From: Thalassia testudinum
Taxonomy: Eukaryota > Streptophyta > Magnoliopsida > Alismatales > Hydrocharitaceae
Reading direction: 5' to 3'
DNA length: 64,000 nucleotides
Assembly (NCBI GenBank): GCA_037157565.1
Contig: JAZHRO010000013.1
Location: 33,298,501 to 33,362,500, forward strand
How positions within the stretch are numbered: position 1 is the first letter of the stretch; the number at the start of each line of letters is the position of its first letter. Position numbers and translations under genes: made by a program. The notes beneath the pieces are model-generated. The model was given only the letters and a program-made list of their open reading frames with translations, was not told where the DNA came from and did not search any database. This document shows positions 27,441 to 64,000 of the stretch, in pieces.

Positions 27441-30249
27441 TGTTACGAACATGGGCGTCAGACATGGTTTAAGACGTCTGGGAAGTGGCCCAGACATCTG
27501 GAACCCTTCCCAAAAGTCTGGTATTAAATTTTTTCGGCGTACGGGTTCGCGTCTGCGCGCTTGCGCGCGCAGACTGAATCCGCTGCCTTCGTCCTGCTCT
27601 TCCTCTCCCTCACTGCAGATGCGTCGCTTCTCTTCTCTCTCTCCCCGCATTGCCTTTAAATACCATCTCCCTCTCCCTCACCCTCACTCCACCGCCTTCC
27701 TCTTCTCCTTCTCCCTGCCAGCAAGAGCGCGAGCGAGTGAGCGACTGCGGCAGCAGCGGGCGCGGCGAACGTGCGGGAAGGAGTGTTGCGAGAGGAAGGA
27801 AGAAGCTCGACCATGAGGGTGCGAGCTTACCGAGGCAGCTAGAGCCGGCCGGCGGGGGAGCAGCGGGCGTGGGGTGTCGCGGAAGGGCTGCTGCAGCTCG
27901 GGCAGCAGGTAGACACGGCGCGGCGCGGCCCTACGTCGTGGGCGGAGAGCGAACCAAGTCCTGATTCTGGGAAAATTTCCCAGAATCAAACGTCTGGACT
28001 TACGTCCAGACGACACCGAAGACGTCTGGAGGACGGCCCAAACGTCTGACGGGTATAATAATTTCCTATCTTCTCCTTTTTACGCGTGTACGGCCATGCA
28101 TCCGTCCGCCGCGTCCTTCTGCGCCTCTTCGTGATGAGAGCGGGTACGTGTGTGCAGGTGTTGTTCGGGAGGGCACGAGGGCTCACCATCCCACACGGAT
28201 CAGATGTCTAGCCACAGTGCCAGACGACGGAGAGGACCTCCAGACGTCCGGGGTGACAATCGGACGTCTGGAAACTAAGGCCAGACGATCCAGCGGACTT
28301 CTGGACGTCTGAAGGACTGCGCAGACCGAGGTACGACATGACCAACCTTTTAAGACGTCTGGAAGAGGTTCCAGACGTCTGATTTTGGGCAGATTCATCG
28401 TTTTTGACCCGTTTAGGGTCTGTTCGGAGTCCGTTTTCCGTGTTTCAAGTTGCGTTCTTTCCAGATTTATTTCCTCTACCTGTTTGCAGTAATTGTATGC
28501 TATTCTGAGTAACCCCTTGTGTTGATCCTTGTGTTAGGCTCTAGGAGTTGCAGAGATACGCGGGATTGCCGACCACACCCCCAGTTCTTCCGATTTCGCG
28601 GGTAGAGTGGCCCTTGCAATTATTTATCAAATAAAAATTATGCATTTGTGAAATAATTAATAGAGTCTAGGGCATTGCATGAACCTTAGGGCTGAAAATT
28701 AGATTGAATGATAGATCCTAGGGTATTACATGAATCCTAGGACTGGAAAAACTAGATTGAATGATAGATCCTAGGGTATGGCATGAATCCTAGGAACATA
28801 GAACATGGAAACAAATGTCCTGAATGCCTGAATTGTAGTCGTGGATAAGTGGATAAAATAATGATAATTGCCTGTAATTGGATAACAGCTACCTATGAAA
28901 TGTAGAGTACTGTTACTAGTAACTGTTGCATGTAATTTCTGTTGATTGAAATTAAATACGAGCTGCTTGTATACAAATTAGAAAGAAAAAGAAGTTGAAT
29001 GTTGGAAAACGTACTATATGCGAATCAACTTGAAATGATGAAACCTAGTATGGCTTGGCCTGAGAAACATGAGCATGAACCCTACCGGGAATTAGGAGTA
29101 GAACTCCTGGAAATAAATGGGATGGAATTGGAAAAGTGAATGGGAAAGTTTGTTGTCTCTTGGGCACATAGTACAAGGGAAAGCACCAGTTACCTCTTAG
29201 TGTAGAGGAGAGCCAGACGCCCTAGGGACTTGGGGTTAGGTCTGGCCACTTTGTACTGACTCTTAGCCCTCGCGTACACTGTACCGGGGAGATCTACTAG
29301 TGTAGGGAGGGAGCTAGCCACCCCACGAGCCCCGGAGTTTCAGCTAGCCATCCTACACCGACTTGTTAGGCCCACTGGGCAAACCAGGGTAGTCAAGCGA
29401 GGGTGCACGGACTGTGGAGGGGCAAGACCCCTGTTTGGTTACTGTGGAGGGGCTGGACCCCTGTTACTGATAGGGCTCTGCCCTATACTGGTTTCGTGCT
29501 GTGCTTTAGGCGCACCTGTTAATGGAAACAACTGACCGCGTGCAAGTGCGGGATAGTGACCCGTGCGTTTATCGCGCATGCCGTAGTCACCGTTACGTCT
29601 GTCAGCGACCTTGGGGTGGTTGACTAAGGGTAGGACCACCACGGGGAACTCTCCCAGCCAGGAGAGCACCACGTGTTACTTCTACTTTTCGGAAAAGACT
29701 GCAATCAAGATCGTTCCCACGAGGAACATTCGAGATCAAGACAAAGATCTGAGAAATAATCAATAGTGAATAAATGGAAAAATATAACAACTACTGTACA
29801 CTCTACTGTTTCTTTTAGCTTTTAGTTGCCTCTCTATTCAGCGTTTCGCTGACGTGTCACCCTTGTTACCTTTTCAGGACCAGGTGTTGAGCAGCCAGAG
29901 TCAACGGCTACAGAGGGCGCTGGGCCTAGTAGAGCCCAGTAGTGCTACTTGCAGTACCAACTATACTTTTCTTTCCGCTGTAGTAAGTAGTTTCTGTTAC
30001 CTCTGTACTCTTTTTGTTGTAAGCTTCATGTTAATGTGCCTGTTTAATTCTCTACTGTTGTGGTGGTGTATACTGTAGTATTTCTTTTCTTTACTGTTGT
30101 ATTTTGTTACTGCTAGTTATATACATGGTGAATGTGGTTTATTTTACTGCTCTTTTGGTTACTTTCTCGTTGGACGACTGTGGTCTTGGGATCAGTCGAG
30201 TCGTTCCGATTCTCGTGTCTCGTAGGGATTCGGGAATCGGGTCGTTACA
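27441..30249. mobile_element. Solo LTR L, unrelated to the Athila LTRs, inserted in gag of B
   Basis: This 2,809-bp block starts TGTTACGAACATGGGCG and ends GGGTCGTTACA. Its flanks are ACTCG (27436-27440) and ACTCA (30250-30254), a 5-bp duplication with one difference. Gag is continuous across it. The complement of its end, TGTAACGACCC, is a start often seen in Del/Tekay-type Ty3/gypsy LTRs, so the family is probably that, but orientation is unsure: TTTAAATACC at 27655 would be a plus-strand TATA. It has no genes. GACGTC occurs seven times (first near 27473, last near 28372), partly as a hairpin (AGACGTCTGGAA / TTCCAGACGTCT, about 28351-28380). Confidence 0.7.
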
Positions 30250-30254
30250 ACTCA

Positions 30255-31202
30255 TATCCACCCCCATCTGACTCCCGAACCGGAGGAACCTTCGATCCTT
30301 TCTACCCTTGCCGGGGGAGCCCGACTCCCCCATTCTCCAACTTTTCTGAGGCTCCTCAGACCTGTGAGGACCTCAACGCCATCCAGAATGACCCATTTTG
30401 AAACACCTACAATCCAGGATGGCGAAACCATCACAATTTCCAGTGGGCTTGAAATTCTCAGAATCCAAGACCACCCTTTCAACCCCATCCGCAAGCCCCT
30501 CATCCTTATCAGACGCCTCAGCCTCGGCCCAACCCCACTTATCTATCTAGGTCTAACCAAGATCAAATGTCCCTTATCGTCCAAACTCTGGCTAACATTC
30601 AGAGAACGGATGCGGCTATCCAGAAGCAACATAAGGACGAAATCACAGAGGTCCAAAATCAACTTGCCTAGTTGGCAAATTCTCGCCAACCTGGCACTCT
30701 TCCTTCTCAGCCTTTTCCTAACCCGAATAGCATGCCAACCCAGCGGCTCGTTATGAATCCAAACCCGGGCCAAGCACACTTGATCTATCAGGCCCATTCT
30801 GTTGCATCACTTGATGGGATGGAAGCATCAACCTCCTATGCGGGTTACCAACAGCAGCAGCCCATCCTACCAACCCCCAACCAAAACCAAGTAGGAATAA
30901 ATTCAGTCACAACCCGTAGTGGTAAGGCAACCCAAGATCCACCTTATCCAGACCACTCTAAGACTGGTAGTGACCCAAACCCTAAGACAGTCATCCAGAA
31001 TGTTCCCATCCCTGTCCCAGATCAAAAACCTAGACCTATCCTAGAGCAACCAACCAAGGTTCCATTTCCCGAGGCCTTGACCAAAGGAAAGCGAACAACT
31101 AAACCCGTGGCTCCTGAAGAGGACCTGATCAAGCACTTTGAGCAGGACCAAATAAACATCCCCTTGATTGATGCGATCCGCCATGTACCGGCGTACGCAT
31201 GA
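30255..31202 (+). pseudogene. Element B: gag C-terminal part and gag-protease linker
   Basis: The frame resumes after L. Frameshifts split it, and the clearest piece is 30672-31202. It has a Gln- and Pro-rich section (GYQQQQPILPTPNQNQVG), then INSVTTRSGKATQDPPYP and the KGKRTTKPVAPEEDLIKHFE linker found in Athila polyproteins. It stops at TGA 31200-31202, where element C has an Arg codon (CGA), so a single C-to-T change ended this frame. Confidence 0.75.
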
Positions 31203-31205
31203 TTT

Positions 31206-32207
31206 TTGAAGAATGTGAGTACACCTCAGCCTAAGCCGCGAACCAAGAGTAGGAGTCCAATTGTACTGTCAAAGCAAGCCAGCTCTGTAATCCTGAGTAG
31301 ACTCCCACCTAAGGCAAAAGACCCAGGCACTCCCTTGATTTTATGTAAGATCGGTGAAACCCAGTTTGATAGAGCATTATTGGACCTAGGTGCCTCCATA
31401 AACTTGATACCCACATCCCTACTTAACCATCTAAAAGAATCTGAGCTGAAATCGACCGAGGTGACATTGCAGTTAGCAGATCGATCTATCAAGTCATCTA
31501 AGGAAATTCTTGAGGATGTTATTGTTAGGGTGCAGGATTTCTACTTCTCTGTAGATTTCATAGTTTTAGATATGAACGCACCTGAAAATCCAAGGGATAC
31601 ACCAATCATACTAGAAAGGCCTTTTCTAGCCACTGCAAGGGCCAACATAAGTTGTGAAGTGGGCCAAATAGAGCTAAAATTTGGGAATAAGACTCTCAAA
31701 ATTGATATCTTTAAGGCCTAACAAAGGATCAACTGCGGCGTCGTTGAACAAATTTGTGATATCAGAGCCATGGTTGATGAACCATAACTTGAGGACATCA
31801 TGATTATCCCTCACCAACCACAAGAAAATCTCAAACCGCAATTAAAGGAGTCAGAACTTGACCTAAGCAGACCCATAACTCCTACCCTTGTACCCCACAC
31901 TCACTCTGAACCACCCGCTGCTGATGATAACCCCATTCTTGAACTCAAACCCCTTCCCGAACATTTGAAATACGTATTTTTGGGTTCCAATCAGACGCTT
32001 CCTGTGATTATAAACTCCAAACTCACACCTGATCAAGAATCCCGTCTGATTGTTGTTCTCCAGCAACATCGTAGAGCCATTGGTTGGACTCTCGATGATT
32101 TGACTAGAATAAGTCCCTCTTATTTCACACACCACATCTATTCTGAAGAGGGTGCACAACCTTCACGTGAAATGCAAAGATGTTTGAATCCCAATCTGTA
32201 GGAGGTC
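31206..32207 (+). pseudogene. Element B: aspartic protease and linker to reverse transcriptase
   Basis: The protease active-site motif is DLGAS within FDRALLDLGASINLIPTSLL, the form normal for Athila proteases. The flap-side and C-terminal parts follow (FIVLDMNAPENPRDTPIILE). Stops at 31719-31721 and 31785-31787 (both TAA for CAA in C) and 32199-32201 (TAG for CAG in C) break the linker. The linker piece at 31800-32201 ends in the conserved IGWTLDDLTRISPSYFTHHI segment that precedes reverse transcriptase. Confidence 0.8.
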
Positions 32208-33612
32208 GTGAAGAAGGAGATCATTAAGTGGTTAGATGCAGGGATCATCTACCCGATCTTTGACAGTCGATGGGCAAGCCCCATCCAGGTTGTGCCTAAG
32301 AAGGCAGGGCTCACCACTATCACGACTGAAATCGGAGAAGTTATACCTACCCGTATAGCCAACTCGTGGAGAGTCTGCATAGATTACCCAAGACTTAATT
32401 CCTCCACGAAGAAGGATCATTTCCCACTACCATTTATTGACCAGATTCTTGAGAAGTTAGCGGGAAATAGATTCTTCTACTTTCTTAACAGGTACTCCGG
32501 TTACAACCAAGTGGCGATTCATCCTGAGGACCAAGAGAAGACCACATTCACTTGCCCCTTCAGGACGTATGCGTTCCGAAGAATGCCTTTCAATCTCTGC
32601 AATGCACCCGCGACTTTTCAGCGGTGCATGCTTGCCACATTCTCTAATATGGTAGGTAAATATCTGGAAGTCTTCATGGATGACTTCTCAGTTTTCGGGG
32701 CATCATTTGACAATTGCCTCCAGCGCTTGGTTCACATACTTAGGCATTGCATTGACGTAAATCTGGTTCTTTCCTGGGAAAAGAGCCACTTTATGGTGCC
32801 TGAGGGGATCGTCCTGGGACACTTAATTTCTGAGAGAGGCATTAAGGTGGAACGAGCCAAGGTTAATCTAATTTCTAGACTTCCAATGCCTAGCTCGATC
32901 AGGGACATCCAATCTTTTCTGGGGCACGTCGGTTTTTTCCGTCATTTCATTCCTGATTTCTCAAAAATTATGCACCCCCTGACTACTCTTCTCTCCAAGG
33001 ATGTACCCTTTGAGATCCTTCGTGACCGAGTCATCCAAGCCCCTATCCTAGAGTCCCCTGATTGGTCTCAACCCTTTGAGATCATGTGTGATACATCTAA
33101 CTTCTCTGTAGGAGAAGTTCTGGGGCAGAAGATTGACGGGAAACCCGTGGTCATTTACTACGCTAGCAAGACACTTGACGAGGCTCAGCGTAACTACACG
33201 GTTACAGAGAAAGAGCTGCTAGCGGTAGTATTTGCCCTTGAAAAATTCAGATCTTATCTCCTGGGTTCCCACGTCATAATCTACTCGGATCACACAACTG
33301 TGAGGCATCTCCTTGCTAAGAAGGACACGAAGACTTGATTAATCCTATGGATCTTGCTACTGCAAGAATTCGACCTTGAGATTCGCGACAAGGTGGGAAG
33401 ACAAATTGTGGTAGCTGACCATTTGTCTCACCATCCTTCTGAGATCATCGACCCTTCTGGACCCATCGCGGAGCATTTTCCTAATGAGCACCTCCTGACT
33501 ACTGGTACCAGGCTTCCATGGTTTGCTGATATAGTAAACTACTTGGCATCACACCAGATCCTGTCTGATTGGCCAAAGGCCAAGAAAGATAAGTTGCACT
33601 CCGATGCCAAGT
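32208..33612 (+). pseudogene. Element B: reverse transcriptase and RNase H, truncated
   Basis: The 376-residue frame (32208-33338) is the longest retroelement coding piece in the window. It contains WASPIQVVPKK, WRVCIDYPRLN, FPLPFIDQILEKLAG, FRRMPFNLCNAPATFQRCM and the catalytic FMDDFSVFG (the Athila form of YxDD), then the connection and RNase H domain (VIYYASKTLDEAQRNYTVTE). Oddities: the RNase H start reads CDTSNFSVGEVLG, where CDASDFAVGAVLG is the family norm. A TGA at 33336-33338 replaces CGA of C. The frame continues with LLLQEFDLEIRDKVGRQ and stops matching the family after SDAKY at 33612, before any integrase. Confidence 0.85.
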
Positions 33613-33671
33613 ACCTACCTGGCACCTCCCATGGAAAAGGTACAGGTCTTCCCAGATATAGTACTTGGCAT
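33613..33671. other. Centre of the B/C inverted repeat
   Basis: GATGCCAAGTA ends the left arm (33603-33613), and its complement TACTTGGCATC begins the right arm (about 33661-33671). Between them are about 47 bases: 20 or so of unmatched filler (CTACCTGGCACCTCCCATGG) and about 27 that are the continuation of C's pol (YIWEDLYLF on the minus strand). The two elements therefore meet within about 27 bp of the same pol position. Confidence 0.7.
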
Positions 33672-35133
33672 CAGAGCACAACTTATCTTTCTTGGCCTTT
33701 GGCCAATCAAACAGGATCTGATGAGATGCCAAGCAGTTTACTATATCAGCAAACCATGGAAGCCTAGTAACAATAGTCAACAGATGCTCATCAGGAAAAT
33801 GCTCCGTGATGGGTCCAGAAGGGTTGATGATTTCAGAAGGAAGGCGAAACAAGTGGTCAGCTACCACGTTCTGTCTTCCTTCCTTGTCGCGAATCTCGAG
33901 GTCGAATTCTTGCAACAGCAAGATCCATCGGATTAATCGAGGCTTCACGTCCTTCTTAGCAAGGAAATGCCTCACAACTGTGTGATACGAGTAGATTATG
34001 ACGTGGGAACCCAGGAGATAAGATCGGAATTTTTCGAGGGCAAATACTACGGCTAGCAGCTCTTTCTTCGTAACCATGTAGTTACGCTGAGCATCATCAA
34101 GTGTCTTGCTAGTGTAGTAGATGACCACGGGTTTCCCATCAATCTTCTACCCCAGAACCGCTCCTTCAGCAAAGTCAAATGCATCGCACATGATCTCAAA
34201 GGGTTGAAACCAATCAGGAGACTGTGAGATCGGGGCTTGGGTGACTCGGTCACGAAAGTTCTCAAAAGCCTGAGTGCATTCCTTAGAAATTTCAAAGGGT
34301 ACATCCGTGGAGAGAAGAGTAGTCAGGGGGCGTGCGATTTTCGAGAAATCAGGAATGAAATGACGGTAAAAATCGACGTGCCCCAGAAAAGAACGAATGT
34401 CCCTGATCGAGCTAGGCATAGGGAGTAGAGAAATCAGATCAACCTTGACTCGATCCACTTGGATGCCTTTCTCAAAAATTAAATTACCTAGGACGATCCC
34501 CTCAGGCACCATTAAGTGGCTCTTTTCCCAAGAAAGAACCAGATTTACATCGATGCAACGCTTGAGTGTATGAACCAAGTGCTGGAGGTAATCATCAAAT
34601 GATGCCCCGAAAATTGAGAAGTCATCCATGAATACATCCAGAAAATCACCTACCATATCAGAGAATATGGCAAGCATGCACCGTTGAAAAGTCGCGGGTG
34701 CATTGCAGAGACCGAAAGGCATCCTTCGGAACGCGTACGTCCCAAAGGGGTAGGTGAATGCGGTCTTCTCTTGGTCCTCAGGATGAATAGTCACTTGGTT
34801 ATAACCGGAGTACCTGTCAAGAAAGCAGAAGAATCTATTTCCCGCTAATTTCTCGAGAATCTGATCAATGAATGGTAGTGGGAAATGATCTTTCTTCGTG
34901 GAGGAATTTAGTCTTCAGTAATCTATGCAGACTCTCCACGAGTTGGCTATATGGGTAGGTATGACTTCTCCGGTTTCAGTCGTAATGGTGGTAAGCCCTG
35001 CCTTTTTAGGCACAACCTGGATTGGGCTCACCCAATGACTGTCAGAGATCGGGTAGATGATCCCTGCATCTAACCACTTAATGATCTCCTTTTTCACGAC
35101 CTCCTGCAGATTGGGATTCAAACGTCTCTGCAT
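33672..35133 (-). pseudogene. Element C: reverse transcriptase and RNase H, truncated
   Basis: Minus-strand pieces in order: EVVKKEIIKWLDAGIIYPIS (from 35133), RMPFGLCNAPATFQRCMLAI and FMDDFSIFGASFDDYLQHL (34794-34147), then RNase H with VIYYTSKTLDDAQRNYMVTK (34128 down). The product is about 80% identical in residues to that of B by eye. Unlike B it keeps the KECTQAFENFRDRV segment, lost in B. Stops and frameshifts break the frame (for example around 34915 and 34147). It ends after SDAKYYIWEDLYLF; integrase is absent. Confidence 0.8.
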
Positions 35134-36229
35134 TTCCCGGGAGGGTCATGCGCCCTCTTCAGAATAAATACGGTGTGTGCAATAAGAGGGACTTATTCCA
35201 GTCAAGTCATCGAGAGTCCAACCAATGGCTCTGCGATGTTGCTAAAGCACAGTAATCAGACAGGATTCCTGATCAGGTGTGAGCTTGGAGTTTATAATCA
35301 TAGGAAATGTTTGATTAGAACCCAAGAAGACATATTTAAAATGATCGGGAAGGGGTTTGAGTTCAAGAATGGGGTTATCAGCAGCAGCGAGTGATTCAGA
35401 GTGAGTATGAGGTACAAGGATAGGAGTTATGGGTTTGTCCATCTCAATGTATGCCTCCTCTAATTGCGGTTCAAGATTCTCTTGTGGTTGATGAGGAATG
35501 ATCATGTTGCCCTCAAGTTGTGGTTCATCAACCAGAGCTCTAACATCACAGATTTGTTCAAGGACACCGCAACTGATCCCTTGTTGGGCCTTAAAGATAT
35601 CAATTTTGAGAGTCTGATTCCCAAATTTCAGTTCTATTTGGCCCTTTTCACAACTTATGTTGGCCCTTACAGTGGCCAGAAAAGGTCTCCCTAGTATGAT
35701 TGGTGTATCCCTTGGGTTCTTAGGTGCATCCATATCTAAGACTATGAAGTCTACAGGGAAGTAGAAATCCCGCACCCCTACAAATAACATCCTCAAGAAT
35801 CCCTTTTGGTGACTTGATAAATCGATCTGCTAACTGTAGTGTCACCTCGATCGGTTTTAGCTCATATTCTTCTAGATGGTTGAGTAAGGATGTGGGTATC
35901 AAGTTTATGGAGGCACCTAAGTCTAACAATGCTCTATCGAACTGGGTTTCACCGATCTTACATGAAATCAGGGGAGTGCCTTGGTCTTTTGCCTTGGGTG
36001 GGAGTCTACTCAGGATTACAGAGCTGGCTTGCTCTGACAGTACAATTGGACTCCCACTCTTGATTCTCGGCTTACGCTGAGGTGTACACACGTTCTTCAA
36101 AAATCGTACGTAAGCCGGTACGTGGCGGATTGCATCCATCAAGGGGATGTTTATTTGGACCTGCTCAAAGAGCTTGACCAGGTCCTCCTCAGGAGCCACG
36201 GGTTTGGTTGTCCTCTTTCCCTTGGTCAA
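35134..36229 (-). pseudogene. Element C: aspartic protease and linkers
   Basis: The minus strand from 36229 encodes the KGKRTTKPVAPEEDLVKLFE linker, the protease with active site DLGAS in FDRALLDLGASINLIPTSLL, and FLATVRANISCEKGQIELKF. A frameshift near 35780 joins two frames (35720-36229 and 35242-35796). This is the least damaged protease in the window. Confidence 0.8.
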
Positions 36230-39085: not shown

Positions 39086-39104
39086 CTCCCCGGCAACGAT
39101 GCCA
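39086..39104 (-). other. Primer-binding site of element C
   Basis: The minus strand reads TGGCATCGTTGCCGGGGAG, one change from the E-type site in the first ten bases. It follows the LTR end CCA (complement of 39110-39112) and a GTTTT spacer. Confidence 0.75.
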
Positions 39105-39109
39105 AAAAC

Positions 39110-41830: not shown

Positions 41831-42528
41831 TCACCCGCTTCACCCGGCCTCATCTGCGACCACCCCCCGCAGACCTGGCCTGACCCGTATACCCGACCTG
41901 CACTCCTCGCCCACCACCGCACGTCGGTGGGCCTGGTCCCGAGCGCGTACACCCGACCCGTATACCTGCGAAGGCTTTGGGAGAGTGAACCTGAGAGAGA
42001 AATAGAAAGAGAGAGACACTGGGAGGGTAGGGGTTAGGTTTTGCCTAACCTTACACTATGCAGGGAAGTAGGAGAAGAAGAAAAGTGAAGGAGCGGCTGA
42101 ACACTTAGCTGCACAGAGGAGCAGAAGCAGAAGAGAAGGAGGAGGGAGTGCAGCAGAGAAGAAGAGACGCAGCTAAAGAAAAAGAAAGAAGACAAGAGCA
42201 AAAGCTGAAGAAAGAGAAGCCGTAGAGAAGAAGAGAAGAAGCCAAGAGGAAGAAGAACCAGCAGAAGCACTGTAGCAAGTGGCAGTTTAAGTCGTCTGAC
42301 ATTGAAGTTAGACATCTGGAGAGAGAAAGACAGAGGAAGAAGGAAGAAAAGAAGACAAGAAAAATTTTATTCCCTTTCTCTAATTTTTTTGTAAAACAGT
42401 ATATATCCGGATTATAAATTGTGATTTTGTACGCTTCTAAAATCAAGTGTTGCTCCCTGAGTTCGACCTCAAAAGTTTCCTATTTTTCGAGTAATAAAAA
42501 CAAACATACTTGCTGGAACCGAACAGCA
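41831..42528 (+). mobile_element. Element B: remaining end of the 3' LTR
   Basis: This 698-bp block matches 24680-25382 of B's 5' LTR closely, including the purine-rich tract, the GACGTC-type hairpin (42291-42316) and GTTCGACCTC at about 42460. It ends GAACAGCA and is followed by GAAGG, near-identical to GAACG before B's 5' LTR. Its upstream part was lost or replaced by C. Confidence 0.75.
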
Positions 42529-51912: not shown

Positions 51913-51978
51913 ACCCACATCCCCACCTTGATTTCCTTCCCTCTATTTCCTCGCTGTAATTAATACCCCAGGGCTACC

Positions 51979-51985
51979 TTTAAAT
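51979..51985 (+). promoter_or_regulatory. TATA-like box of the zinc-finger gene (candidate)
   Basis: TTTAAAT within CTACCTTTAAATCCCC is the only TATA-like site in the last 300 bp before the gene. It would place transcription start near 52010 and give a GA-rich 5' untranslated region of about 250 bases (GAGAGA runs at 52145-52200). Confidence 0.35.
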
Positions 51986-53345: not shown

Positions 53346-55971
53346 GGCGACACCCACCCGTCTATCAAGATCCGATCTTTACGCGCTGGTCGTGGTTGGG
53401 ATCGGGAAATCTCAATTGGGTCTCTCTTGGATTTCCAAGTAAGCATCGAAAAGGTTAGAATCTCGAATTGGTTCTCTGTTTCTGTTCAAAAGGCTGACAG
53501 TGGAAAAAGGAGGCAAAAAAAAAACAGAGACTGCAAATCTGTTCTTTTCCCTCGCTCTCTCTCTCTTTTTGTTTGTTCAATTCTTCTGATAAGTAGAATT
53601 GTTAATTCTGGGGTTGTATTCTGCCATTGCACCCGAGCAGTATTACTTCAGCAAGTGGTGTCGAGTAGCACTGTTGGATTAGCGGATCGTCGACACGCAT
53701 GTCTGGATTTGTGCTTCACACCATGCTTTGAACGGTTCATGTGAGTCGATCCGAGTAGAGCATAAGTTGGGTAGTATGGTTCTGGAACCGTTGGCGATGA
53801 ATTGGATTTGATTGGACTGGTTCGGATTGGATTGGATTGGTTGGCGATTGGAATGACGGGAGTGGCGGTGGAGGGGGCTGTGGTTGATGGGAGGGAAGAG
53901 AGGTGGTGATGGTGGCGGCGGCGGCCATGGGGCTGGTGGTTCCAGCTGTGTTTCGTAACTGTTTTCCCACCTTTACCCCGTTATATTATGCGCGGTTTCC
54001 TTTCTTGGTCCTCCCAAGCAACAACCTGCCCACAATAATAACACCAAGTCCTTCGCCCCGTTGCCATCCCTTGCCAGTTGCTACCGTACGCTACCACCCT
54101 ACTCCCTCTCGATTCCCTTCTTTTGTTCTTGTTATCATAATTAATATACGGTATTGTATTATATTTCTAGCTAGTATACACTCACAGTGGAATACGTACA
54201 CAAAGTAGGACTTCAGTAGGAGTGGAGAAAATATCTCGTACTCTTCTCCGTATTGGAAGGTGTAGAGCGAGCAATAGCACCAGTGGAATACGTACGTACT
54301 AGTACTACTACCGTGTGGGCGGCGCGGTTCTCTCTCTCGATCAGTGGCGAAAAGGGTGAGTCTCGTCAGGAGGACAGGCGGCATCTATTCCCGCTCCTAA
54401 GGTCCAGTGGACGACTCCATCATCACAGCGATCGGATCGGATTTGGGGTGTGAACATGGAGGGATCTCTTTCCATATTTGAAGCCGAGCCGAAAGGCAAC
54501 CGATCTTGGGATCCTGGAAATCAATCCCACCATCCGATACGCATGCGACACTTGTAATGCACACAAAGATTTCACCCTTTTTCTCTTTTTCTAATTTATG
54601 GGTTTTTTTTTCCTTTTATTTTTTACTCATTTATTTCGTTATCCTTTGTTGGGATTGAGACCCGGTGAACGGGATGACCGGTTCCGGTTGGAGGAGGCTC
54701 GTAGGTTACTTCATTAAGGCCTCAAACAAGGTTGGGACAATTGAGCCTTAATGCTCAAAAATAGAACGACCCAAAGCTACAACGGGTACGTACACACAGG
54801 CTTAATTTGTGTGGTTGTTTATGGGCTAAACAAGTTGGACAGCACATTAATCACGTTCATCTCCTTGATTCACGTCACATGTACTTTTACCCCTCCCATC
54901 CCCATACAATTTGCAAGGAGCGTCCGCAAGGTCATCTGACTGGCGTGCGTCCTCTTCCGATGAGGTTCGAATTGGACTTTGACCTGGAAGGGGCATTTAA
55001 AATGCTTGTGGGGCGTTTTTTTTTTTTTTTTTTTTTAACGTAACGGAGGGCGCCCATCTACTGGTCTAAATTGGTTTGCATGCAAAAGGAGACCACCCCA
55101 CACCCCCCCCCCCCACCCCCACCCCGACCCCTACCCCGGCGGCATCTCGCGTAAGCGGGGAGAGGGGTGAGAGAGTGGGGGGACGAATTCCACGCAACGA
55201 GTGGGGTGCGTGTGGACCAAACCGAGGCGTTCACGTGTTCGTCCACGTTGGTGAACGGGTTGGAGGTGGGATTTCGCGGGAACGATAAGGGGCTGAATGC
55301 AAGTTTCCCAAGGTAAGGTCTTGCACGTGGCCTTGGGGTTCGGATAGACGTCTGCTTTGGCCCTGTCTGTGGCTCCCCGTCGCGTTATCGGGGCTCGTCG
55401 CTTGGTTTGCATGCAGTTGTGGTGATGCGGCGTTATCCTCGTCTTGGTTGCCTCTTATCTTTTCCTACTTGATTTGTCCTTTCTTTTTTTTTTTAATATT
55501 AATGTATATTAATGAAAATTTTATATAAAAGTTTACTTTTTGTTTTTGAATAAATTATATCAGTAATATTTTGATATGGATAAATGATATTAAAATTTTA
55601 AATCAAATATCAATCGATGATATTTAAATATTTAAATTTCAAATCAGATTTTACATTATCATTAATATAATATAAAAAATATCATCCATCATTTTCATTT
55701 TTTAAAGGATATGTAAATTATTACACTTTTAAATCAGGCTACTTTTTAAAAATGTTATTCAAATTAATTATTAGATATTTACTTGACAGCAAAACAAAAA
55801 ATTGGGCAGTATTAATATAATCGTGGGATCTGTGGACCCCTGGATGTTGGATGGCGTGTTAGATCTTCCATGGCACACTTACGTTGCAATACTTCTTTTC
55901 TTACAGGACATAATCTGTGTATCTCGTCTGGGGCGAGCGTTATTTATCTTCTTGGGAGGTTGGGTTCTCTC

Positions 55972-56016
<45 letters not shown>

Positions 56017-58012
56017 GAGGGGGTGGTATTATAATGTAAGTTGATTCTTTTTCATCAAAGAAGTTTTCACCCAGGTTAAAACAAACAAATAACACTCCAT
56101 GCATCTAAGTGGCAATATGTGATACCAAGGCATGATATTTTGGTGTGGTGAAGTTGGAATTTGAAATGTAATGCATTCTAAAGTAGAGATTGATCAGAGG
56201 AATTGCAATGCGCATCCTCTTTGAATGAAAATTTGCATATGTACTTCTTGGAAATTATTGTCTCCACGTACATCCCTCCTATATATTCATATTTATTTTC
56301 ATATACCTATAAATTCGTTGCCCAGACCTACTTAAGTTAGTTATTATTAAGATTAAGTTAACCATTTAACAACTTTAGAGGGTTTGACTAAAGTGTACTT
56401 GGTGGTACGCCGATCCCTATTACAATATGCTGCGTAATGAGTATGTATGACCAGGGTGGCATATGGAGGGTATGTGTGCCAATTGTGCACAAGAAGGATA
56501 GGTATGTAATTCACACCATTTGACCTTCGGATAAACATATGGAGTTTTCAATTCTTTTTTTTTTATGGGGTGTTTCATTCGAGGGAATTATTCTACTCCT
56601 TTTTCTCTTTTACTTATCGCCTTAGAATCCCTCGGGGTAAACGAGGGGTGAAATCAATAGTCAAAAACTACGTCCCTTGGGCAAGTTCAAGGGGACTCAA
56701 ACGGGATACTTCTAACCTGTCACAGTTAGGTGACGTGGGCTTTGCCACCGTCCACACATATGAAAGGTGTTAGGGAATGATCGTATTTGGAGGGAATAAC
56801 TTTGTACTTTAATTCAACTCCACGTATGATGCCTTTGACATCATTAAGTGAGGGGATTATCCCACGATAGACGATAGCAGAGGATTGTGAAAGAAATTAA
56901 ATTTAAAGTCGAGAAATATAATTTATCTTACTCTATTGCTCGATATCAACATCAAATTATTACATTACATCATATCAATACTGATATATATTAAAATACA
57001 TCTATTCTAACATAATATATCTATTAAAATACATTTACTATATCACATCAATTTACTCACAATCATATCATAATATTAAACATATACTCATTAATATTAT
57101 ATCAATGTACCCATCATTTACCAAATAAACATTCCTCTTCTTTTATTCCTACAATATTTTATCTTGTGACAACACTTGTCACACTGGCAAATGAAGCCTC
57201 AGAGAAATCCTTGGTGCCGGAAAGTTAGCCTCTTCTTTGGCAACTAATGTTACGCAAATTGAACATATCCATTTGAAGCTATGTAGTATCCAATTTTGAA
57301 ACTTAGAAGTGCATCTAAACCATCTAGGCAAACAAATAAGAATCCAATATAAACCCCATTGAACAATACCAGAAAGTATTCCTCTTTTAATAGGGTCATG
57401 CATATATATTTGAATGCACTTATGGGTCCCAAATCAATTTCCCTCGAAGATAAAATTAGAGCACACATACTATTTACATGATCTGAGCTAAGTTATGCAG
57501 AGGTTTGCCACAATTGAAGAGTGTAAACATAGATCTCTTATACCAAGCATTTATATCTTAGGCCAAGCCTGACAAGAGATCTAAAACTAGATGCTCTGGA
57601 GTGCGTTTGAGTTTTTAGACAAAGTCATGTTCTTCTTTATAGTAGTTTGTCTGCTTATTGTGCATTGATAATGGTTGAAAACTTCCATATTGTGACTTAA
57701 ATGAATAATATTTGCTTTAGTAAAGAGAAAAACTTTCTACGTGAATCAAGGATATATAAATTGCATTAATAAATACCCATCTCCCTTACGCAGGTACTCC
57801 CTTTACTAGAATGGGATCCATCAACAGAATATACTTATACATTTAAAATATCACTAGTGATATTTACTATTGTCACGTAAAAAGTCACATATCCCTTACA
57901 GTACACCTGATAATATCTACCACTCACCAAAAAATAAGAAATCATTAGCGGTTTTCATATATAACTGAAAATCACCGGTGATATTTGAAATATCCTGGTG
58001 ATATCTGGTTAG
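53346..58012. other. Downstream region of the zinc-finger gene and intergenic DNA
   Basis: The first 0.4 kb probably holds the 3' untranslated region; no AATAAA was noticed. GGATT-type microsatellite-like text lies at 53790-53860, a T run at 55016-55036, C-rich text at 55104-55140, and a very long T run at 55977-56015. From 55490 to 55760 the DNA is highly AT-rich. Short frames (for example 53903-54208 and 57179-57403) show no known family. Confidence 0.55.
55977..56015 (+). repeat. Poly(T) run of about 39
   Basis: An uninterrupted T run, flanked by CTCTATGA and GGAGGGGGTGG. It could be the tail of an antisense retroposed sequence or an expanded homopolymer; no target duplication was seen. 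Confidence 0.8.
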
Positions 58013-59568
58013 TGTTGGTGCAAATGCACCTTGGTCCTTGGTTTTAATGATAATAAATCAAATATATATTTAGCAATTGCATTTGAGTTGTGAATTCTCA
58101 TGTTAATGCAATTGATTTAGAACATTTGGAAGGTGCTCAAGCTCATAGTCCATGGAGATGGAAAAGCTTAATGAAGAACAAATGCATCAGGAAGCAATGG
58201 AGCTAATGCTTAAAGTTAAAGCTTAAAGACAAAGAAGAAAGAAAAATAGAATAGACTATTTTGTTTATATTCTATGTATTTATTTTCGTTATTTTCTTTT
58301 CATTAAATAGTTATTAAAGAGACCAAATATAATAACCAAAGTCCCAGATACACTCACTTAACCATTGGACACTTAGGTAAATCTTAGAATCAAGTTAAAA
58401 AACCAAAATAGCAAACAACCTACCTTATCAGAAGTTCAAATATCTTATCAAACATCCAATAACCTATCTTAAGATGTCTAAACATTTGACAAAATTTCAA
58501 TGAGTCTATGGCATTTACTTTCGAACATCCATACTTTGTGTCAGATGTCCATTGACATTCCCAGACGTCCAATAGTTCACCATTGTGATTAAATTTGACC
58601 CAAATTTTGTTATCAGACCAAATCATGATTTCTCAATAAATAAAAAATTAAATTCTTAGCAACACACCTTACATCAAACGTCCAACACTATGATCAAACA
58701 TCCAATGGTTAAGATCATGTACCTTGCACAAGATTCAATTCAATTCCAAGGAAACCACCTTAAAGAATCAAACCTCTAATTTTCTTATCAGACATCTAAC
58801 ATACCACGATCAAAAGTTTGATCAATTTATCAGATATCCAAATATCCTGTTAGTTGCAATAATTGATCTGTTGTTAATTAGATTTTGGCCAAATCTTCTT
58901 GAATTTAGTTCCAACGGCTAGGAAACCTCTCCCAAGCCCTCTTGAACCTTTCTAAGACCTCTATAAATAGTCAAGAGCCTCTCCTTTGTACAAGATACCT
59001 AGGAAATAATTCTTTCTACCATTATACCCATTATGAGAGCATCAAAAGAGAGAAGAAACTCTACCCTTGCTCTCAACTCTTTATACTTCGATACTAGAGC
59101 ACCGTTGCACTACATAATTACACCCATCAGCTTCCACATTAAGAGAGTACCCTTCACACCTATAATAGCTAGTTGTAGTCTTTATTCTGGGCTTTATAAG
59201 TTATTTATATTTTCATTTTTGTTGGGTATTCGCATTGTAAATTTCTATTTCTGCATGAGACCAAATATTCTTCATAAAGAAGAGGGGTTTTGAGAGACAC
59301 TACCCTCGATCAAAGTAGTGTGGTTGTAATTAAAGTTGTATCACCCTCATTTAAGTGTTAGGTTAGTGAGCTTGTTTGATCAACTAGGTCGATCGAAAAA
59401 TCCTAAGTCAGGGTAACTTAGGTGGTGGTTTTTACCCTTAGAGTTAATTTGTACCTGAAAATACTTGTCTCATTGTCAGGATTGATTTTGTGGGATTGTT
59501 TTTTATTTCTCAAATTCTTATCGATTTTATTTCCTACACTATTCACCCCCTCTCTAGTGCAAATCACA
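58013..59568 (+). mobile_element. Old solo LTR M, SIRE-related (Ty1/copia)
   Basis: It starts TGTTGGTGCAAATGCACC, close to the start of the young SIRE-type LTR at 59780 (TGTTGGTGCTAGAGCACC), and ends with CACCCCCTCTCTAGTG... CACA, parallel to that LTR's CACCCCCTCCTAGTAGG...TTTCA. It is flanked by GTTAG (58008-58012) and ATTAG (59569-59573), one difference. A TATA box CTCTATAAATAG lies at about 58960, as in the young LTR (60840). Length 1,556 bp. It has the same motif string as the young LTR but in decayed forms such as AGATGTCT, CAGATGTCC and CAGACATCT. Confidence 0.65.
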
Positions 59569-59779: not shown

Positions 59780-61497
59780 TGTTGGTGCTAGAGCACCACG
59801 ATCATTTGTTTTGATGATAACAAAACACGTGTTATTTAACATTTGCAATTTGAGTCCTAGATTTCAGGTCAATTGCAAATGAAGACGTGTTTAGACGGAA
59901 CTCGAGCTCGCATCCAGGACGGATTGGAGGAGCTTGACGGAAAATAGAGGAGGTTCGCGTGGAGCAAAAGATTGGAGATGAAAGACAAGAAGAATAGGAT
60001 AGATTCTTTTTTATCCTTTCATGTATCTCTTGTATTTATTTTCTTGCTCTTTTTGATTCCTTAGAACATTATGTTAAAGAGCCTCAAAGAACCCTAACAG
60101 TAGTCCTAGGAACACCTGCACAACCCTAGGATACTTAGGTTTTCTGTAGAACACTTAGAAAACCAATATAGGGTTAAAATAGAATCTCAAGACGTCTAAT
60201 TCACGAATCAGACGTCTGATAAAGAATTTTAAGACGTCTGACTGTTGTTTCAGACGTCTGATAACTGTTAGGCTGGACATAGTTGGTTCTGTCTGATGAA
60301 ATCAGACGTCCATACCTTAGACCAGACGTCTTAGGAGACGTCTGATGACTTTGCCAGACGTCCAATTAGTGGACCGTTGGCTGGCTTAGAAGACACTCAA
60401 GAATATGACCGTTAGAGCCTTATCAGACGTCCTTAGGACTTACCAGACGTCTGATAAATGACCGTTTTGCCTCGGCTGACCCAAAATCTCTTCTCAGAGA
60501 TTTTCTAGCCGTTGCAACGTTTGGAAATCAATTCCCACAGTAAAAGTAGGTTTCCAGACGTCCAGACATAGTACCAGACGTCCTGTATGTCGTCTGATAG
60601 ACTTGCACAAAAACCCTGTTTAGATCTGATTCAAGTCAGGGAGAAACCCGCATAGAATCAGACGTCTGACCTTGGAATCAGACGTCTTTAAGTGGCCTTC
60701 CAGACGTCTGATGCCAGAGTTAGACGTCTGATAACCCTGTCAAATGCAATCATTGTCCTGATTTCGGCCTGATTCTCTTGGGCTTTGCACCCAACGGCTA
60801 TGGAAGCTTTTCCAAGCCTTCCAAAACCTTCCTAAGGCCTCTATAAATAGAGGGGAACCTTTGTAACACAGATACACACCAAGAGAAACAAGAGACACAC
60901 CTAAGCAACTTAGTTCCACTCTTTTGTGTCCAATTGAGGCCCTTGCTCTCCAAGCTCTAGTTTCATTCTCTTGAGAGCATCAAGCCTTCGCGCGCCCGCT
61001 CTCCCGCTGTTGATAACGAGAGCGACGTAGCGCCGTCGCGTGGCACACGCACCGCGTCATCATCGACGCACTCCTTGCAAAGGGGAGTTTCCTATTTCCT
61101 ATAGAAGCTAGGTTTAATTTTGTTGGCTCTATAGGACTGTTGTTTTATTTTATCTTTGTATTTTGGTTGGGTATTCGCTTTGCGAATTCCCGTCTCCTTC
61201 GTGGGACAAAATCCTTCTCGTGGAGAGAAGGGGTTGAGGAACGCTACCCTCGTACTTGTAGCGTGGTTGTATTGAAGTTGAATCACCCTCGTTCAAAGTG
61301 ATTCGGTTAGTGGATTTGATCAACTAGGTTGATCGGAAAATCCTAACTCGAGAGGGTTAGGTGGTGGTTTTCACCCGGTTTGGGTTTCCACCTAAAAATA
61401 CCTGTGTACATTGTGTGATTGCTTAATTTCTTGTGATATTGCTTTATATTTTTATTTTCGCAATTATTACGTCACCCCCTCCTAGTAGGGACTTTCA
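59780..61497 (+). mobile_element. Young SIRE-type element: 5' LTR
   Basis: The LTR is 1,718 bp, TGTTGGTGC...GGGACTTTCA, followed at once by the primer site. A TATA box lies in CTCTATAAATAGAGG near 60842. The left flank is AATAT (59775-59779); the matching duplication is beyond the window. It carries a dense GACGTC cluster. Its first 982 bp look identical to the 3' LTR at 63019, with no difference noticed by eye. Confidence 0.88.
60191..60728 (+). repeat. Cluster of 16 GACGTC palindromes in the SIRE-type LTR
   Basis: GACGTC occurs 16 times in 538 bp, mostly as CAGACGTCTGAT, CAGACGTCC or AAGACGTCT. Pairs can form hairpins, such as AGACGTCTGA near 60230 with TCAGACGTCT near 60250. It lies upstream of the TATA box, so in U3. 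GACGTC is the core of C-box-type sites known to bind plant bZIP factors; binding here is not shown. The cluster recurs at 63430-63967. Confidence 0.8.
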
Positions 61498-61555: not shown

Positions 61556-62698
61556 ATGGAGGGAAGCATAGCCGCAGTCAGAATCTCCGAAGGGCAATCC
61601 ACCGTCCGACCACCCTATTTCGACGGGAGGGACTTCGGATATTGGAAGTTGAGGATGAAGACGTGGCTTCAAGCCACGGACTTCGCTCTATGGGGATGTT
61701 GCGAAACCCCATACGAGATCCCGAAGCGACCCCAAGGAGGCTACTCGCAGCTGCAGATTCAAGATCTCTCACTCAACGCAAAGGCAATGAATGCCTTGTA
61801 TTACGCGTTGAGTCTGGAAGAGTTCGAGAAAATCCAAGAGTGCACCACCGCCCACGAGATATGGAGGAGGTTGGAAGGCACTCATGAGGATTCCAGCTCA
61901 GAGGAAGAAGAAGAAGAAAAAGAAGAAGAAACCACTTGCTTTGGTTTCATGGCAATCGGAGAAAGCGACAACGACAACGAAAGCGACTCCGACAATGAGG
62001 TAAACCTAGATTTACAAGAAGCCTTTAATGAACTTTTTGAGATTAGTAAATCACTTAGGGTAGAAAATAAAAGCATTAAAAAGAACCTTAGTTTTCTTAG
62101 AAATGAAAATGATAGGTTAGAAAAATAACTCAAGGATATAGAGACTAGTCCTAAGGATAATAACCTGTTATTAGAAAATCAAGACCTCATCAATGAAAAT
62201 AATAAGTTGATTGAGGAAAATGATAGTCTTAAGTTAGAAATTTCTGATTTAAAGACTAAAATGAACATTATAGAAAAAGAAATTGCATGTCTTAGGGAAA
62301 ATTCTAACAAACTAATCAACAAAGTAGATGATTTTTATAGCCCTAAGGTTGAGACAGGATCTCCATCAAGGAGACCTTCTAACAAATCCGGATCCAAGCT
62401 CACTTGGATACCGAAGAAAAAATTAGAATCTTGTTTTGTAGGGTTCAGGGATGACTACAACATAAAGGACTGGACCTACAAGCTCAAGGCTGGTCAACTT
62501 AAGTTGGGAGAACCAATGAGTAGACCAAGGAGGAGAAGAAGAAGACCGACGAGACGGCGAACAAATGACGGACCCGCCGCACGTCGACCACCAGATTGGA
62601 GACCGGCGCCTATGCCCGGGCCTCCAAGCTACGGATGGGAGCCCCATCCAATGTGGCATCCACCACCACCATTCGGGCCATTTTATTGGCCATGGTAG
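61556..62698 (+). pseudogene. Gag-derived protein of a non-autonomous SIRE-type element, one stop codon
   Basis: One reading frame of 380 codons is broken only by TAA at codon 191 (62126-62128). Residues 20-48 hold the DUF4219/UBN2-like start of copia Gag (YFDGRDFGYWKLRMKTWLQA), then MNALYYALSLEEFEKIQEC and AHEIWRRLEGTHE. An acidic run SSSEEEEEEKEEE follows directly. A Leu/Asn/Glu-rich coiled coil spans about 150-255. After LTWIPKKK comes an Arg-rich run (about 323-335) and a Pro/Trp-rich tail ending PFGPFYWPW. The CCHC zinc knuckle normal for SIRE Gag is missing, as are protease, integrase and reverse transcriptase. Such gag-only elements move with enzymes supplied by relatives. Whether the basic, Pro-rich tail is captured or degenerate env-like sequence is unknown. 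Confidence 0.75.
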
Positions 62699-62740
62699 GT
62701 GAGGTAAAATTCTTAACCCTATCCTTTTTATAAGCATTTA

Positions 62741-63018
62741 GATAGGGGGAGTTAAAAATGATGAGCTTATTGTCAATTTTTAAGGGGGAGATACAAGTTA
62801 GCTAAATTTCCTTTAGTAAGGGGGAGAAAAATAATAGCTATCTTGTTGTTATAAAAAGGGGGAGGACATTACCTTTGTTAAAATAAATAGAAGAGCATGT
62901 TTTAAGGGGGAGTAATAGGAAATATAAAATCAATCAAACCTTTTTGATAATGTCAAAAAGGGGGAGGATTTTTATGCATTATTATTTACGGTTTTGTCAT
63001 CATCAAAAAGGGGGAGAT
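62741..63018 (+). repeat. Seven AAGGGGGAG-type polypurine tracts before the 3' LTR
   Basis: GGGGG cores lie at 62745, 62784, 62820, 62858, 62906, 62960 and 63010, 36-54 bases apart, mostly as AAGGGGGAG. The last ends 5 bases before the 3' LTR and is the one expected to prime plus-strand synthesis. Repeated tracts here are characteristic of SIRE/Maximus elements. Confidence 0.85.
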
Positions 63019-64000
63019 TGTTGGTGCTAGAGCACCACGATCATTTGTTTTGATGATAACAAAACACGTGTTATTTAACATTTGCAATTTGAGTCCTAGA
63101 TTTCAGGTCAATTGCAAATGAAGACGTGTTTAGACGGAACTCGAGCTCGCATCCAGGACGGATTGGAGGAGCTTGACGGAAAATAGAGGAGGTTCGCGTG
63201 GAGCAAAAGATTGGAGATGAAAGACAAGAAGAATAGGATAGATTCTTTTTTATCCTTTCATGTATCTCTTGTATTTATTTTCTTGCTCTTTTTGATTCCT
63301 TAGAACATTATGTTAAAGAGCCTCAAAGAACCCTAACAGTAGTCCTAGGAACACCTGCACAACCCTAGGATACTTAGGTTTTCTGTAGAACACTTAGAAA
63401 ACCAATATAGGGTTAAAATAGAATCTCAAGACGTCTAATTCACGAATCAGACGTCTGATAAAGAATTTTAAGACGTCTGACTGTTGTTTCAGACGTCTGA
63501 TAACTGTTAGGCTGGACATAGTTGGTTCTGTCTGATGAAATCAGACGTCCATACCTTAGACCAGACGTCTTAGGAGACGTCTGATGACTTTGCCAGACGT
63601 CCAATTAGTGGACCGTTGGCTGGCTTAGAAGACACTCAAGAATATGACCGTTAGAGCCTTATCAGACGTCCTTAGGACTTACCAGACGTCTGATAAATGA
63701 CCGTTTTGCCTCGGCTGACCCAAAATCTCTTCTCAGAGATTTTCTAGCCGTTGCAACGTTTGGAAATCAATTCCCACAGTAAAAGTAGGTTTCCAGACGT
63801 CCAGACATAGTACCAGACGTCCTGTATGTCGTCTGATAGACTTGCACAAAAACCCTGTTTAGATCTGATTCAAGTCAGGGAGAAACCCGCATAGAATCAG
63901 ACGTCTGACCTTGGAATCAGACGTCTTTAAGTGGCCTTCCAGACGTCTGATGCCAGAGTTAGACGTCTGATAACCCTGTCAAATGCAATCATTGTCCTGA
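63019..64000 (+). mobile_element. Young SIRE-type element: 3' LTR, cut by the window end
   Basis: The first 982 bp of the LTR are present, aligned without gaps to 59780-60761. It includes the second copy of the GACGTC cluster (63430-63967). Confidence 0.9.

What the first reader, a model, noticed from the sequence alone, without database searches (positions are those of the whole stretch)
27473..63967. The GACGTC palindrome is shared by three unrelated retroelement families and amplified to 16 copies in one
GACGTC-centred AGACGTCT occurs as a hairpin in the Athila-type LTRs, 7 times in solo LTR L (27473-28377), and 16 times per LTR in the young SIRE-type element (60191-60728 and 63430-63967). 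The flanks agree too: CAGACGTCTGA(T/C) in all three, and L and SIRE both start a hairpin with TTAAGACGTCTG. These families (Ty3/gypsy Athila, a probably Del-like LTR, Ty1/copia SIRE) have no other visible similarity. CpG-containing sites decay quickly in methylated plant DNA, so such density suggests recent amplification or selection. GACGTC is a known bZIP (C-box) core. Convergent capture of one host regulator by different retroelements is possible.
Basis: partly seen in the sequence, partly recalled or inferred. Interest (0 to 1): 0.8.

Follow-up and report, generated by a model that had tools for sequence, protein, structure and literature searches.

The report
Paired palindrome shared by plant retrotransposons
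A ten-letter DNA palindrome, set in pairs exactly 20 letters apart, recurs in the control regions of at least three unrelated families of jumping genes in one large plant genome, which suggests that they all use the same DNA-binding factor.

Summary
GACGTC: 51 in the window against 6.8 expected. The unit is a PAIR of decamers, (T/C)CAGACGTCTG(G/A), 20 bp centre to centre with unconserved spacers: 8 of 8 pairs in the Sirevirus LTR, again in solo LTR L and in Athila-type LTRs, one of them at 21 bp. In the 4.26-Gb genome GACGTCTG-N10-CAGACGTC occurs 223,699 times (reversed control 1); N0-N9 together give 20,107, N11-N40 133,360. A T/A-swapped form without ACGT occurs 21,150 times. In diverged L copies decamers and CpGs are kept better than matched blocks. 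With decamers masked the families do not align.

Palindromic boxes are known in Sirevirus LTRs (PMC2829016). New here: sharing with two Ty3/gypsy lineages, fixed pair geometry, scale. Most likely these are binding arrays for a dimeric or tetrameric DNA-binding protein, unidentified, exploited by several lineages. The bZIP C-box reading is not supported; exchange of a module of about 40 bp between families is not excluded.

The parts
59780..61497 (+). 5' LTR of a young Sirevirus-type (Ty1/copia) element, TGTTGG...TTTCA, followed by the primer-binding motif TGGTATCAGAGC at 61500
   Evidence: LTRs differ at 2 of 1,718 bases; TSD AATAT on both sides (3' end read in L048)
60190..60729 (+). U3 array of 16 decamers in 8 pairs (pair starts 60191, 60233, 60305, 60337, 60426, 60557, 60661, 60703), each pair exactly 20 bp centre to centre
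60842..60849 (+). TATA box (tataaata), about 112 bp downstream of the array
   Evidence: read; inference from sequence
61556..62128 (+). gag-like ORF; no pol ORF between the LTRs, so read as a non-autonomous element
   Evidence: (PF14223, E 6.9e-9)
62740..63018 (+). seven polypurine tracts (..GGGGGAG) before the 3' LTR, as described for Sireviruses
   Evidence: PMC2829016 abstract
63019..64000 (+). 3' LTR, cut by the window end (continues in L048); same 8 pairs at 63430-63967
27441..30249 (+). solo LTR L (TGTTACGA...TCGTTACA), Ty3/gypsy type, inserted in an Athila-type gag; TSD ACTCG/ACTCA
   Evidence: internal region of a relative in L047
27473..27498 (+). L pair upstream of the TATA-like box tttaaata (27655); second decamer GACATC
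27989..28379 (+). L second array, downstream of the TATA-like box: units at 27989, 28021, 28203, 28223, 28243, 28304 and 28354
   Evidence: up to 3 mismatches
13305..13330 (+). Athila-type LTR hairpin, exact pair
19438..19464 (+). Athila-type LTR hairpin with an 11-bp spacer (21 bp centre to centre)
2171..2196 (-). Athila-type LTR hairpin, GTCGTCTG...CAGACGAC form
23582..23607 (+). Athila-type LTR hairpin, GTCGTCTG...CAGACGAC form
25145..25170 (+). Athila-type LTR hairpin, about 210 bp before the LTR/internal junction near 25378
42291..42316 (+). the same hairpin in the LTR copy 93% identical to that at 25145
58544..58569 (+). decayed pair (GATGTC/GACGTC, 20 bp apart) in an older Sirevirus-like LTR

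Best explanation
The repeated unit is a composite binding site for a sequence-specific DNA-binding protein. Each palindromic decamer (T/C)CAGACGTCTG(G/A) would be bound by a symmetric dimer. Two decamers 20 bp apart (about two helical turns) would be bound together, and neighbouring pairs often repeat at 32 or 42 bp (about three and four turns). The arrays lie in LTR control regions: upstream of the TATA box in the Sirevirus, on both sides of the TATA-like box in L, and once per LTR in the Athila types seen. They most likely act as promoter or enhancer elements, or as sites that keep the LTR from being silenced. At least three lineages (Ty1/copia Sirevirus; a Ty3/gypsy lineage, L; Ty3/gypsy Athila type) respond to the same factor, and tandem duplication plus selection multiplied the sites inside LTRs. 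Shown: motif, spacing, genome-wide number, presence in unrelated LTRs, better retention than matched sequence in L. Inferred: that a protein binds, that it is the same one for all families, and that binding raises transcription or resists silencing.
For: Fixed geometry: pairs at 20 bp in 8 of 8 Sirevirus units and again in L and Athila-type LTRs. Sample not chosen for the motif (15 stretches of 10 kb): decamers with up to 2 mismatches lie at 12 (4), 20 (26), 32 (10), 40 (6) and 52 (7) bp; of 8 control palindromes none gave more than 10 pairs within 130 bp. 44 N10 pairs against 0.18 in shuffles, in 10 of 15 stretches. Whole genome: N10 223,699 (control 1), N0-N9 together 20,107 (control 14), N11-N40 together 133,360 (control 252); of 100 listed N11-N40 places, 92 are at centre spacings 32, 40, 42 or 44; of 50 listed N0-N9 places, counted by eye, 43 are N2 and 7 N9. 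The listed places are the first ones of contig 1, not a random draw.

Constraint: among 11 L LTR copies motif blocks are 0.877 identical against 0.765 for matched non-motif blocks that also carry a CpG; CpG kept 0.818 against 0.642; in the 3 copies from the sample 0.852 against 0.701 and 0.873 against 0.582. Spacers are unconserved: 49 distinct ones after thinning. Unrelated families: no Sirevirus-L match left after masking decamers.
Against: No protein, binding, expression or methylation data. The copies compared come from one genome and from related elements, so site numbers are not independent events; overlapping blocks and pairs of related copies are counted. 8 of the 11 L copies were found because they carry the motif. 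In 5 close Sirevirus copies the retention is hardly above the rest: identity 0.943 against 0.905, CpG 0.868 against 0.852. Part of the 12/20/32/52 lattice is explained by tandem duplication: a 32-bp unit is gained or lost between L copies and a 52-bp unit between Sirevirus copies. The Athila-type LTRs seen have one unit only and show covariation of the two arms, which fits a hairpin as well as a protein site; one of them has an 11-bp spacer.
Confidence: 0.55

Rival explanations
1. RNA or DNA hairpin: the unit works as a stem-loop in the retroelement RNA (leader, packaging, dimerisation, or as a source of small RNAs), not as a protein site on duplex DNA.
For: 9 of 10 folded stretches are more stable than shuffles, z -3.7 to -9.0. 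In 12 Athila-type LTR hairpins 91.7% of cells pair, 4 pairs change on both sides (shuffles 2.0; 8 of 500 reach it), covariation 0.197 against 0.114 +/- 0.019, 0 of 500. In all 230 units unthinned, symmetric changes exceed independence at positions 2 (6 against 3.7) and 7 (17 against 10.7). Maize Sirevirus palindromes are small-RNA hotspots (PMC5311732, PMC10760457, passages).
Against: Over 45 thinned units of all families, symmetric changes do not clearly exceed independence (4 against 2.9 at position 7, 1 against 0.6 at position 2), and the Athila-type changes are few events in related sequences, for which the tool warns that shuffles can be exceeded without structure; further pair types are not in excess (240 of 500). 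One of the ten folds has no structure (z 0.28). A loop should tolerate length change, yet N10 has 223,699 copies and N0-N9 together 20,107. In the Sirevirus the array lies in U3, upstream of the TATA box. Each decamer is itself a palindrome, which a hairpin does not need.
Confidence: 0.18
2. VANC-like anti-silencing: the arrays are targets of a protein encoded by a transposable element that strips silencing from LTRs that carry the motif.
For: VANC targets in Arabidopsis are short motifs at high density in non-coding TE regions that multiply by tandem repeats (PMC5735166, passages; PMC10398659, abstract). The arrays here vary by 32- and 52-bp duplications.
Against: The VANC motifs reported are restricted to a TE family and its relatives, in one orientation, and the sequences given are not palindromes; here one palindrome is shared across Ty1 and Ty3. 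No such gene was sought.
Confidence: 0.12
3. Neutral by-product: slippage and gene conversion inside LTRs multiply a palindromic minisatellite without function; high element copy number does the rest.
For: Unit gain and loss by tandem duplication; 16 sites per Sirevirus LTR and two LTRs per element inflate the genome count.
Against: Spacers have diverged while decamers and CpGs are retained; the same decamer and spacing recur in families with no other similarity; within one LTR all 8 units keep N10.
Confidence: 0.1
4. Host bZIP factor using GACGTC as a C-box.
For: GACGTC is a bZIP C-box core (recalled); ACGT palindromes are dimer sites (recalled).
Against: Retained positions extend to CAGACGTCTG; the GTCGTCTG...CAGACGAC form has no ACGT yet has 21,150 exact genome copies and recurs at the homologous place in Athila-type LTRs.
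Confidence: 0.08
5. Origin by exchange: one hairpin module of about 40 bp moved between retroelement families by recombination or template switching and was then amplified in each, so the sharing is descent rather than convergence (compatible with any of the functions above).
For: Best unmasked matches are 36 bp at 83% (Sirevirus-L) and 42 bp at 83% (Sirevirus-Athila type); L-Athila type gives 15 bp exact or 40 bp at 75%. A TTTTAA 5' flank occurs in L, Sirevirus and Athila-type units.
Against: Nothing aligns beyond the unit; the units within one LTR do not share spacers; similar palindromic boxes exist in Sireviruses of distant plants with very low sequence homology (PMC2829016).
Confidence: 0.3

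Closest known systems
Sirevirus repeated-motif (RM) boxes (Bousios et al. 2010, PMC2829016; abstract, passages and section 9 read)
   Same: Palindromic boxes, at least eight per element, most LTR copies beginning 200-400 bp into the LTR and running 300-500 bp, upstream of the TATA box. The Usier box GTCGGACGTCCGAC differs from TCAGACGTCTGA in its core by two CpG-type transitions.
   Different: Their core is CGG-CCG, here mostly CAG-CTG; no fixed pair spacing is mentioned in the parts read; they call it Sirevirus-specific, absent from classic retrotransposons (their set was Ty1/copia), whereas here Ty3/gypsy LTRs carry it.
Maize Ji/Opie/Giepum LTR palindromes and small-RNA hotspots (Bousios et al. 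2016, not held; known here from passages of PMC5311732 and PMC10760457)
   Same: Clusters of palindromes in the LTR regulatory region, secondary structure, rapid change; the maize palindrome is also found in Helitrons, so sharing across superfamilies has been seen.
   Different: CACCGGACNNNGTCCGGTG, another palindrome; [quoted passage not shown]
VANC target motif arrays of Arabidopsis VANDAL transposons (PMC5735166, passages)
   Same: Short motif at high density in non-coding TE sequence, evolving by tandem repeats.
   Different: Motifs in one orientation, tied to a DNA-transposon family with its own VANC gene.
Repeated U3 activator elements of Tnt1/Tto1 retrotransposons (recalled)
   Same: Repeated, partly palindromic cis elements upstream of the TATA box that bind host factors (recalled).
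   Different: Few copies, one family; other sequences and no lattice of pairs (recalled).

Membership tests
Sirevirus RM box array (Sirevirus LTR 59780-61497) | palindromic box in at least eight copies | tested here: met
   16 decamers, 8 pairs per LTR
Sirevirus RM box array (Sirevirus LTR 59780-61497) | cluster starts 200-400 bp into the LTR, runs 300-500 bp, upstream of the TATA box | tested here: met
   starts 410 bp in and spans 540 bp, both slightly over the stated range; TATA at 60842
Sirevirus RM box array (Sirevirus LTR 59780-61497) | CGG-CCG core | tested here: not met
   core is CAGACGTCTG; CGG/CCG only in a minority. One of their 13 boxes (Tnd-1) lacks it too
Sirevirus RM box array (Sirevirus LTR 59780-61497) | confined to Sireviruses | tested here: not met
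   same unit in Ty3/gypsy L and in Athila-type LTRs
Sirevirus RM box array (Sirevirus LTR 59780-61497) | forms a CpG island | not tested
   no island call was run
Sirevirus (element 59780-64736) | multiple polypurine tracts before the 3' LTR | tested here: met
   seven ..GGGGGAG tracts at 62740-63018
Sirevirus (element 59780-64736) | Ty1/copia gag and pol | tested here: inconclusive
   copia-type gag PF14223; no pol, so RT cannot be placed
Ty3/gypsy Tekay/Del-like chromovirus (L) | Ty3 gag, zinc knuckle, protease, RT and RNase H between two L-type LTRs | tested here: met
   L047: PF03732, PF00098, PF08284, PF00078, PF17919 on the same strand as the L-type LTRs on either side
Ty3/gypsy Tekay/Del-like chromovirus (L) | chromodomain behind the integrase | not tested
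   that part was not fetched; the lineage name is recalled from the look of the RT
Athila type | gag and RT of the Tat/Athila lineage | tested here: inconclusive
bZIP C-box | ACGT core in every functional copy | tested here: not met
   21,150 copies of the GTCGTCTG...CAGACGAC form lack ACGT in the arms, if these copies are functional
VANC target | VANC gene and binding | not testable with these tools
   no binding data; gene not searched

The most novel reading that the evidence does not exclude
A genome-wide retroelement regulon: several unrelated Ty1 and Ty3 lineages of one plant have converged on the same trans-acting factor, which reads paired palindromes with a strict 12/20-bp lattice, so that one factor switches on, or shields from silencing, a large part of a 4.3-Gb genome.
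Probability: 0.4. Interest if true: 0.88.

Novelty: new variant of a known kind. Interest (0 to 1): 0.72.

Why it matters
Palindromic boxes in Sirevirus LTRs were described in 2010; that paper asks for experiments on their regulatory role, and I know of no binding factor. A motif with this many copies, exact geometry and presence in unrelated lineages offers a sharp probe for fishing out the factor and for testing whether retroelement families compete for one host activator or share one escape from silencing. It also bears on how plant genomes grow, since the carriers are abundant: 10 of 15 sampled 10-kb stretches hold at least one unit.

Tried and rejected
Rejected: the single GACGTC as the unit (the pair is the unit). 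bZIP C-box. Compensatory change as general proof of a hairpin: not clearly above independence over 45 thinned units, only in Athila types. Spacer self-complementarity: significant in 138 unique spacers at the first three positions, but in 49 thinned ones only weakly at the first (p 0.049). The L part of the first conservation test included flanking DNA outside the LTR and is not used; replace it. In one search a line labelled reversed control was built with a wrong word and is not used. Searches took the hairpin at 23582 in the wrong orientation; repeat them rightly, with nearly the same result. The viral-contig hit L001 is read as a chance match in phage coding repeats. Paper searches for the motif letters gave nothing relevant among the rows listed (1 of 1, 20 of 163, 40 of 90).

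What I did not get: genome counts of the one-sided form GACGTCTG-N10-CAGACGAC and of the Usier box; the tool did not complete. The Pfam search for a plastid gene to name the plant also did not complete.

Full report
Observation. The window (64 kb, 45% GC) has 51 GACGTC sites against 6.8 expected. Sixteen lie in each LTR copy of a Sirevirus-type element and seven in solo LTR L. Exact AGACGTCT is rarer than the finding says: 11 per Sirevirus LTR and 4 in L.

The real unit. In the Sirevirus LTR every site has a partner exactly 20 bp away: 8 of 8 pairs. The inner spacers differ from pair to pair. L has two such pairs intact and others with one decayed or altered partner; of the Athila-type GACGTC pairs one is at 20 bp and one at 21 bp. 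Scanning for GACGTCTG-N10-CAGACGTC with up to three mismatches gives 31 matches in the window against 0.13 in shuffles and brings in four more Athila-type sites that lack GACGTC on both sides (2171, 23582, 25145, 42291). After thinning 188 instances by spacer to 37, the profile of a half-site is (T/C)CAGACGTCTG(G/A). None of the 31 lies in 42600-57900, the stretch around a zinc-finger gene.

Genome scale. The window lies in a 4.26-Gb assembly. The exact N10 pair occurs at 223,699 places, the reversed pattern at 1. All ten spacings N0-N9 together give 20,107 (control 14); by eye 43 of the 50 listed places are N2 and 7 are N9. All thirty spacings N11-N40 give 133,360 (control 252); of 100 listed places the centre spacing is 32 in 34, 42 in 30, 40 in 23 and 44 in 5. 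The listed places are the first of contig 1. The T/A-swapped form GTCGTCTG-N10-CAGACGAC occurs 21,150 times (control 0). The tool warns that counts of repeats may be lower bounds. The counts are of places, not of independent origins: each element can carry several units in two LTRs.

Sample. Fifteen 10-kb stretches, from base 10,000,001 of fifteen contigs (20 asked for, 5 contigs too short), were not chosen for the motif. They hold 44 pairs with up to three mismatches against 0.18 in shuffles; 10 of 15 stretches have at least one. Decamer distances cluster at 12, 20, 32, 40 and 52 bp, with a further 7 at 112; none of 8 control palindromes behaves so. Of the 13 clusters, 5 match L types (L035, L041:6742 and L045 well, L034 at 68-74%, and L039:5351 distantly over 76-94 bp), 5 match Athila-type LTRs with one unit each, L041:5408 is a single three-mismatch site, and L043 and L044 stay unassigned.

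Families. The Sirevirus-type element has LTRs at 59780-61497 and from 63019, 2 differences in 1,718 bases, TSD AATAT on both sides, seven polypurine tracts, a copia-type gag and no pol. L is a 2,809-bp solo LTR with TSD ACTCG/ACTCA. Between two L-type LTRs on contig 1 the same strand encodes Ty3-type gag, zinc knuckle, protease, RT and RNase H, so L is Ty3/gypsy and its sense is the + strand of the window; relatives of this polyprotein are widespread in plants. Tekay/Del is my reading of the RT from memory. With decamers masked, no Sirevirus-L match remains and nothing significant between the two Athila-type LTRs compared and either (best E 0.043, to L). Unmasked, the best matches are 36 bp (Sirevirus-L) and 42 bp (Sirevirus-Athila type), both 83%, and 15 bp exact or 40 bp at 75% for L-Athila type.

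Constraint. Eleven L LTR copies were compared: 8 found because they carry the motif (7 contig-1 copies and the window's), 3 from the sample (L034 and L039:5351 of the sample were left out as partial or distant); a twelfth was dropped because its 5' part is not L. Blocks that are motif in the other copies are 0.877 identical against 0.765 in matched CpG-bearing blocks, CpG kept 0.818 against 0.642; in the three sample copies 0.852 against 0.701 and 0.873 against 0.582. Blocks overlap and copies are related, so no p-value is claimed. In five Sirevirus copies, which are close to each other, the difference is small: identity 0.943 against 0.905, CpG kept 0.868 against 0.852. Tandem duplication is seen directly: a 32-bp unit differs between L copies and a 52-bp unit between Sirevirus copies.

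Protein site or hairpin. Nine of ten stretches fold better than shuffles as RNA, one does not. In 12 Athila-type hairpins the two arms co-vary: 4 of 11 pairs change on both sides, covariation 0.197 against 0.114 in shuffles, though further pair types are not in excess; these are few independent changes in related sequences. Over all families symmetric changes exceed independence in 230 unthinned units at two positions, but not clearly in 45 thinned ones. The rarity of neighbouring spacings such as N9 argues against a simple loop. Fixed spacing near two helical turns, unconserved spacers and a palindromic decamer fit a dimeric protein that binds in pairs. I put this at 0.55. No step beyond sequence was tested.

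Known background. Bousios et al. 2010 (PMC2829016; abstract, passages and section 9 read) describe palindromic RM boxes in 13 Sireviruses, absent from classic retrotransposons of their Ty1/copia set, upstream of the TATA box; the Usier box GTCGGACGTCCGAC is the nearest. Maize work (PMC10760457, passages and section 10; PMC5311732, passages) reports that such palindromes are small-RNA hotspots, that a maize palindrome is shared by Copia and Helitrons, and that Ty3 elements generally lacked an obvious structure peak. VANC targets (PMC5735166 passages; PMC10398659 abstract) show that motif arrays can serve anti-silencing. Among the rows listed I found no paper reporting this motif, its pair spacing or its sharing by Ty1 and Ty3 elements; the library held is partial and long listings were cut.

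Verdict. Confirmed observation, a variant of a known kind, with an unexplained and testable cross-family geometry.

Noticed in passing
59780-64736 (last part in L048): Young Sirevirus-type element with a gag-like ORF but no pol, LTRs 2 of 1,718 different, perfect TSD AATAT; presumably moved by proteins of other copies.
   Followed up: partly
24679-42525: Athila-type bodies in opposite orientation (30250-33016 against 34289-37051, 88% complementary) between two LTR-like direct repeats (93% identical), with solo LTR L inserted in one gag.
   Followed up: no
52263-53345: Open reading frame for a ZAT-like protein with three C2H2 zinc-finger stretches; best match 47% to Magnolia sinica, so the plant may not be close to a well-covered genome.
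   Followed up: partly
L043:8226-8320: Two units, one with CGTCCG...CGGACG arms, in sequence that matches none of the LTR types compared; possibly a further carrier family.
   Followed up: no
60191-60728: Pairs are themselves arranged in larger palindromes (spacings 20-22-20 and 20-12-20); 60650-60740 folds as one long stem, z -9.0.
   Followed up: partly
50402-50424: A run of 23 C, 12 bases after a GACGTCCACGTG (50378-50389); a second run of 16 C at 51897.
   Followed up: no
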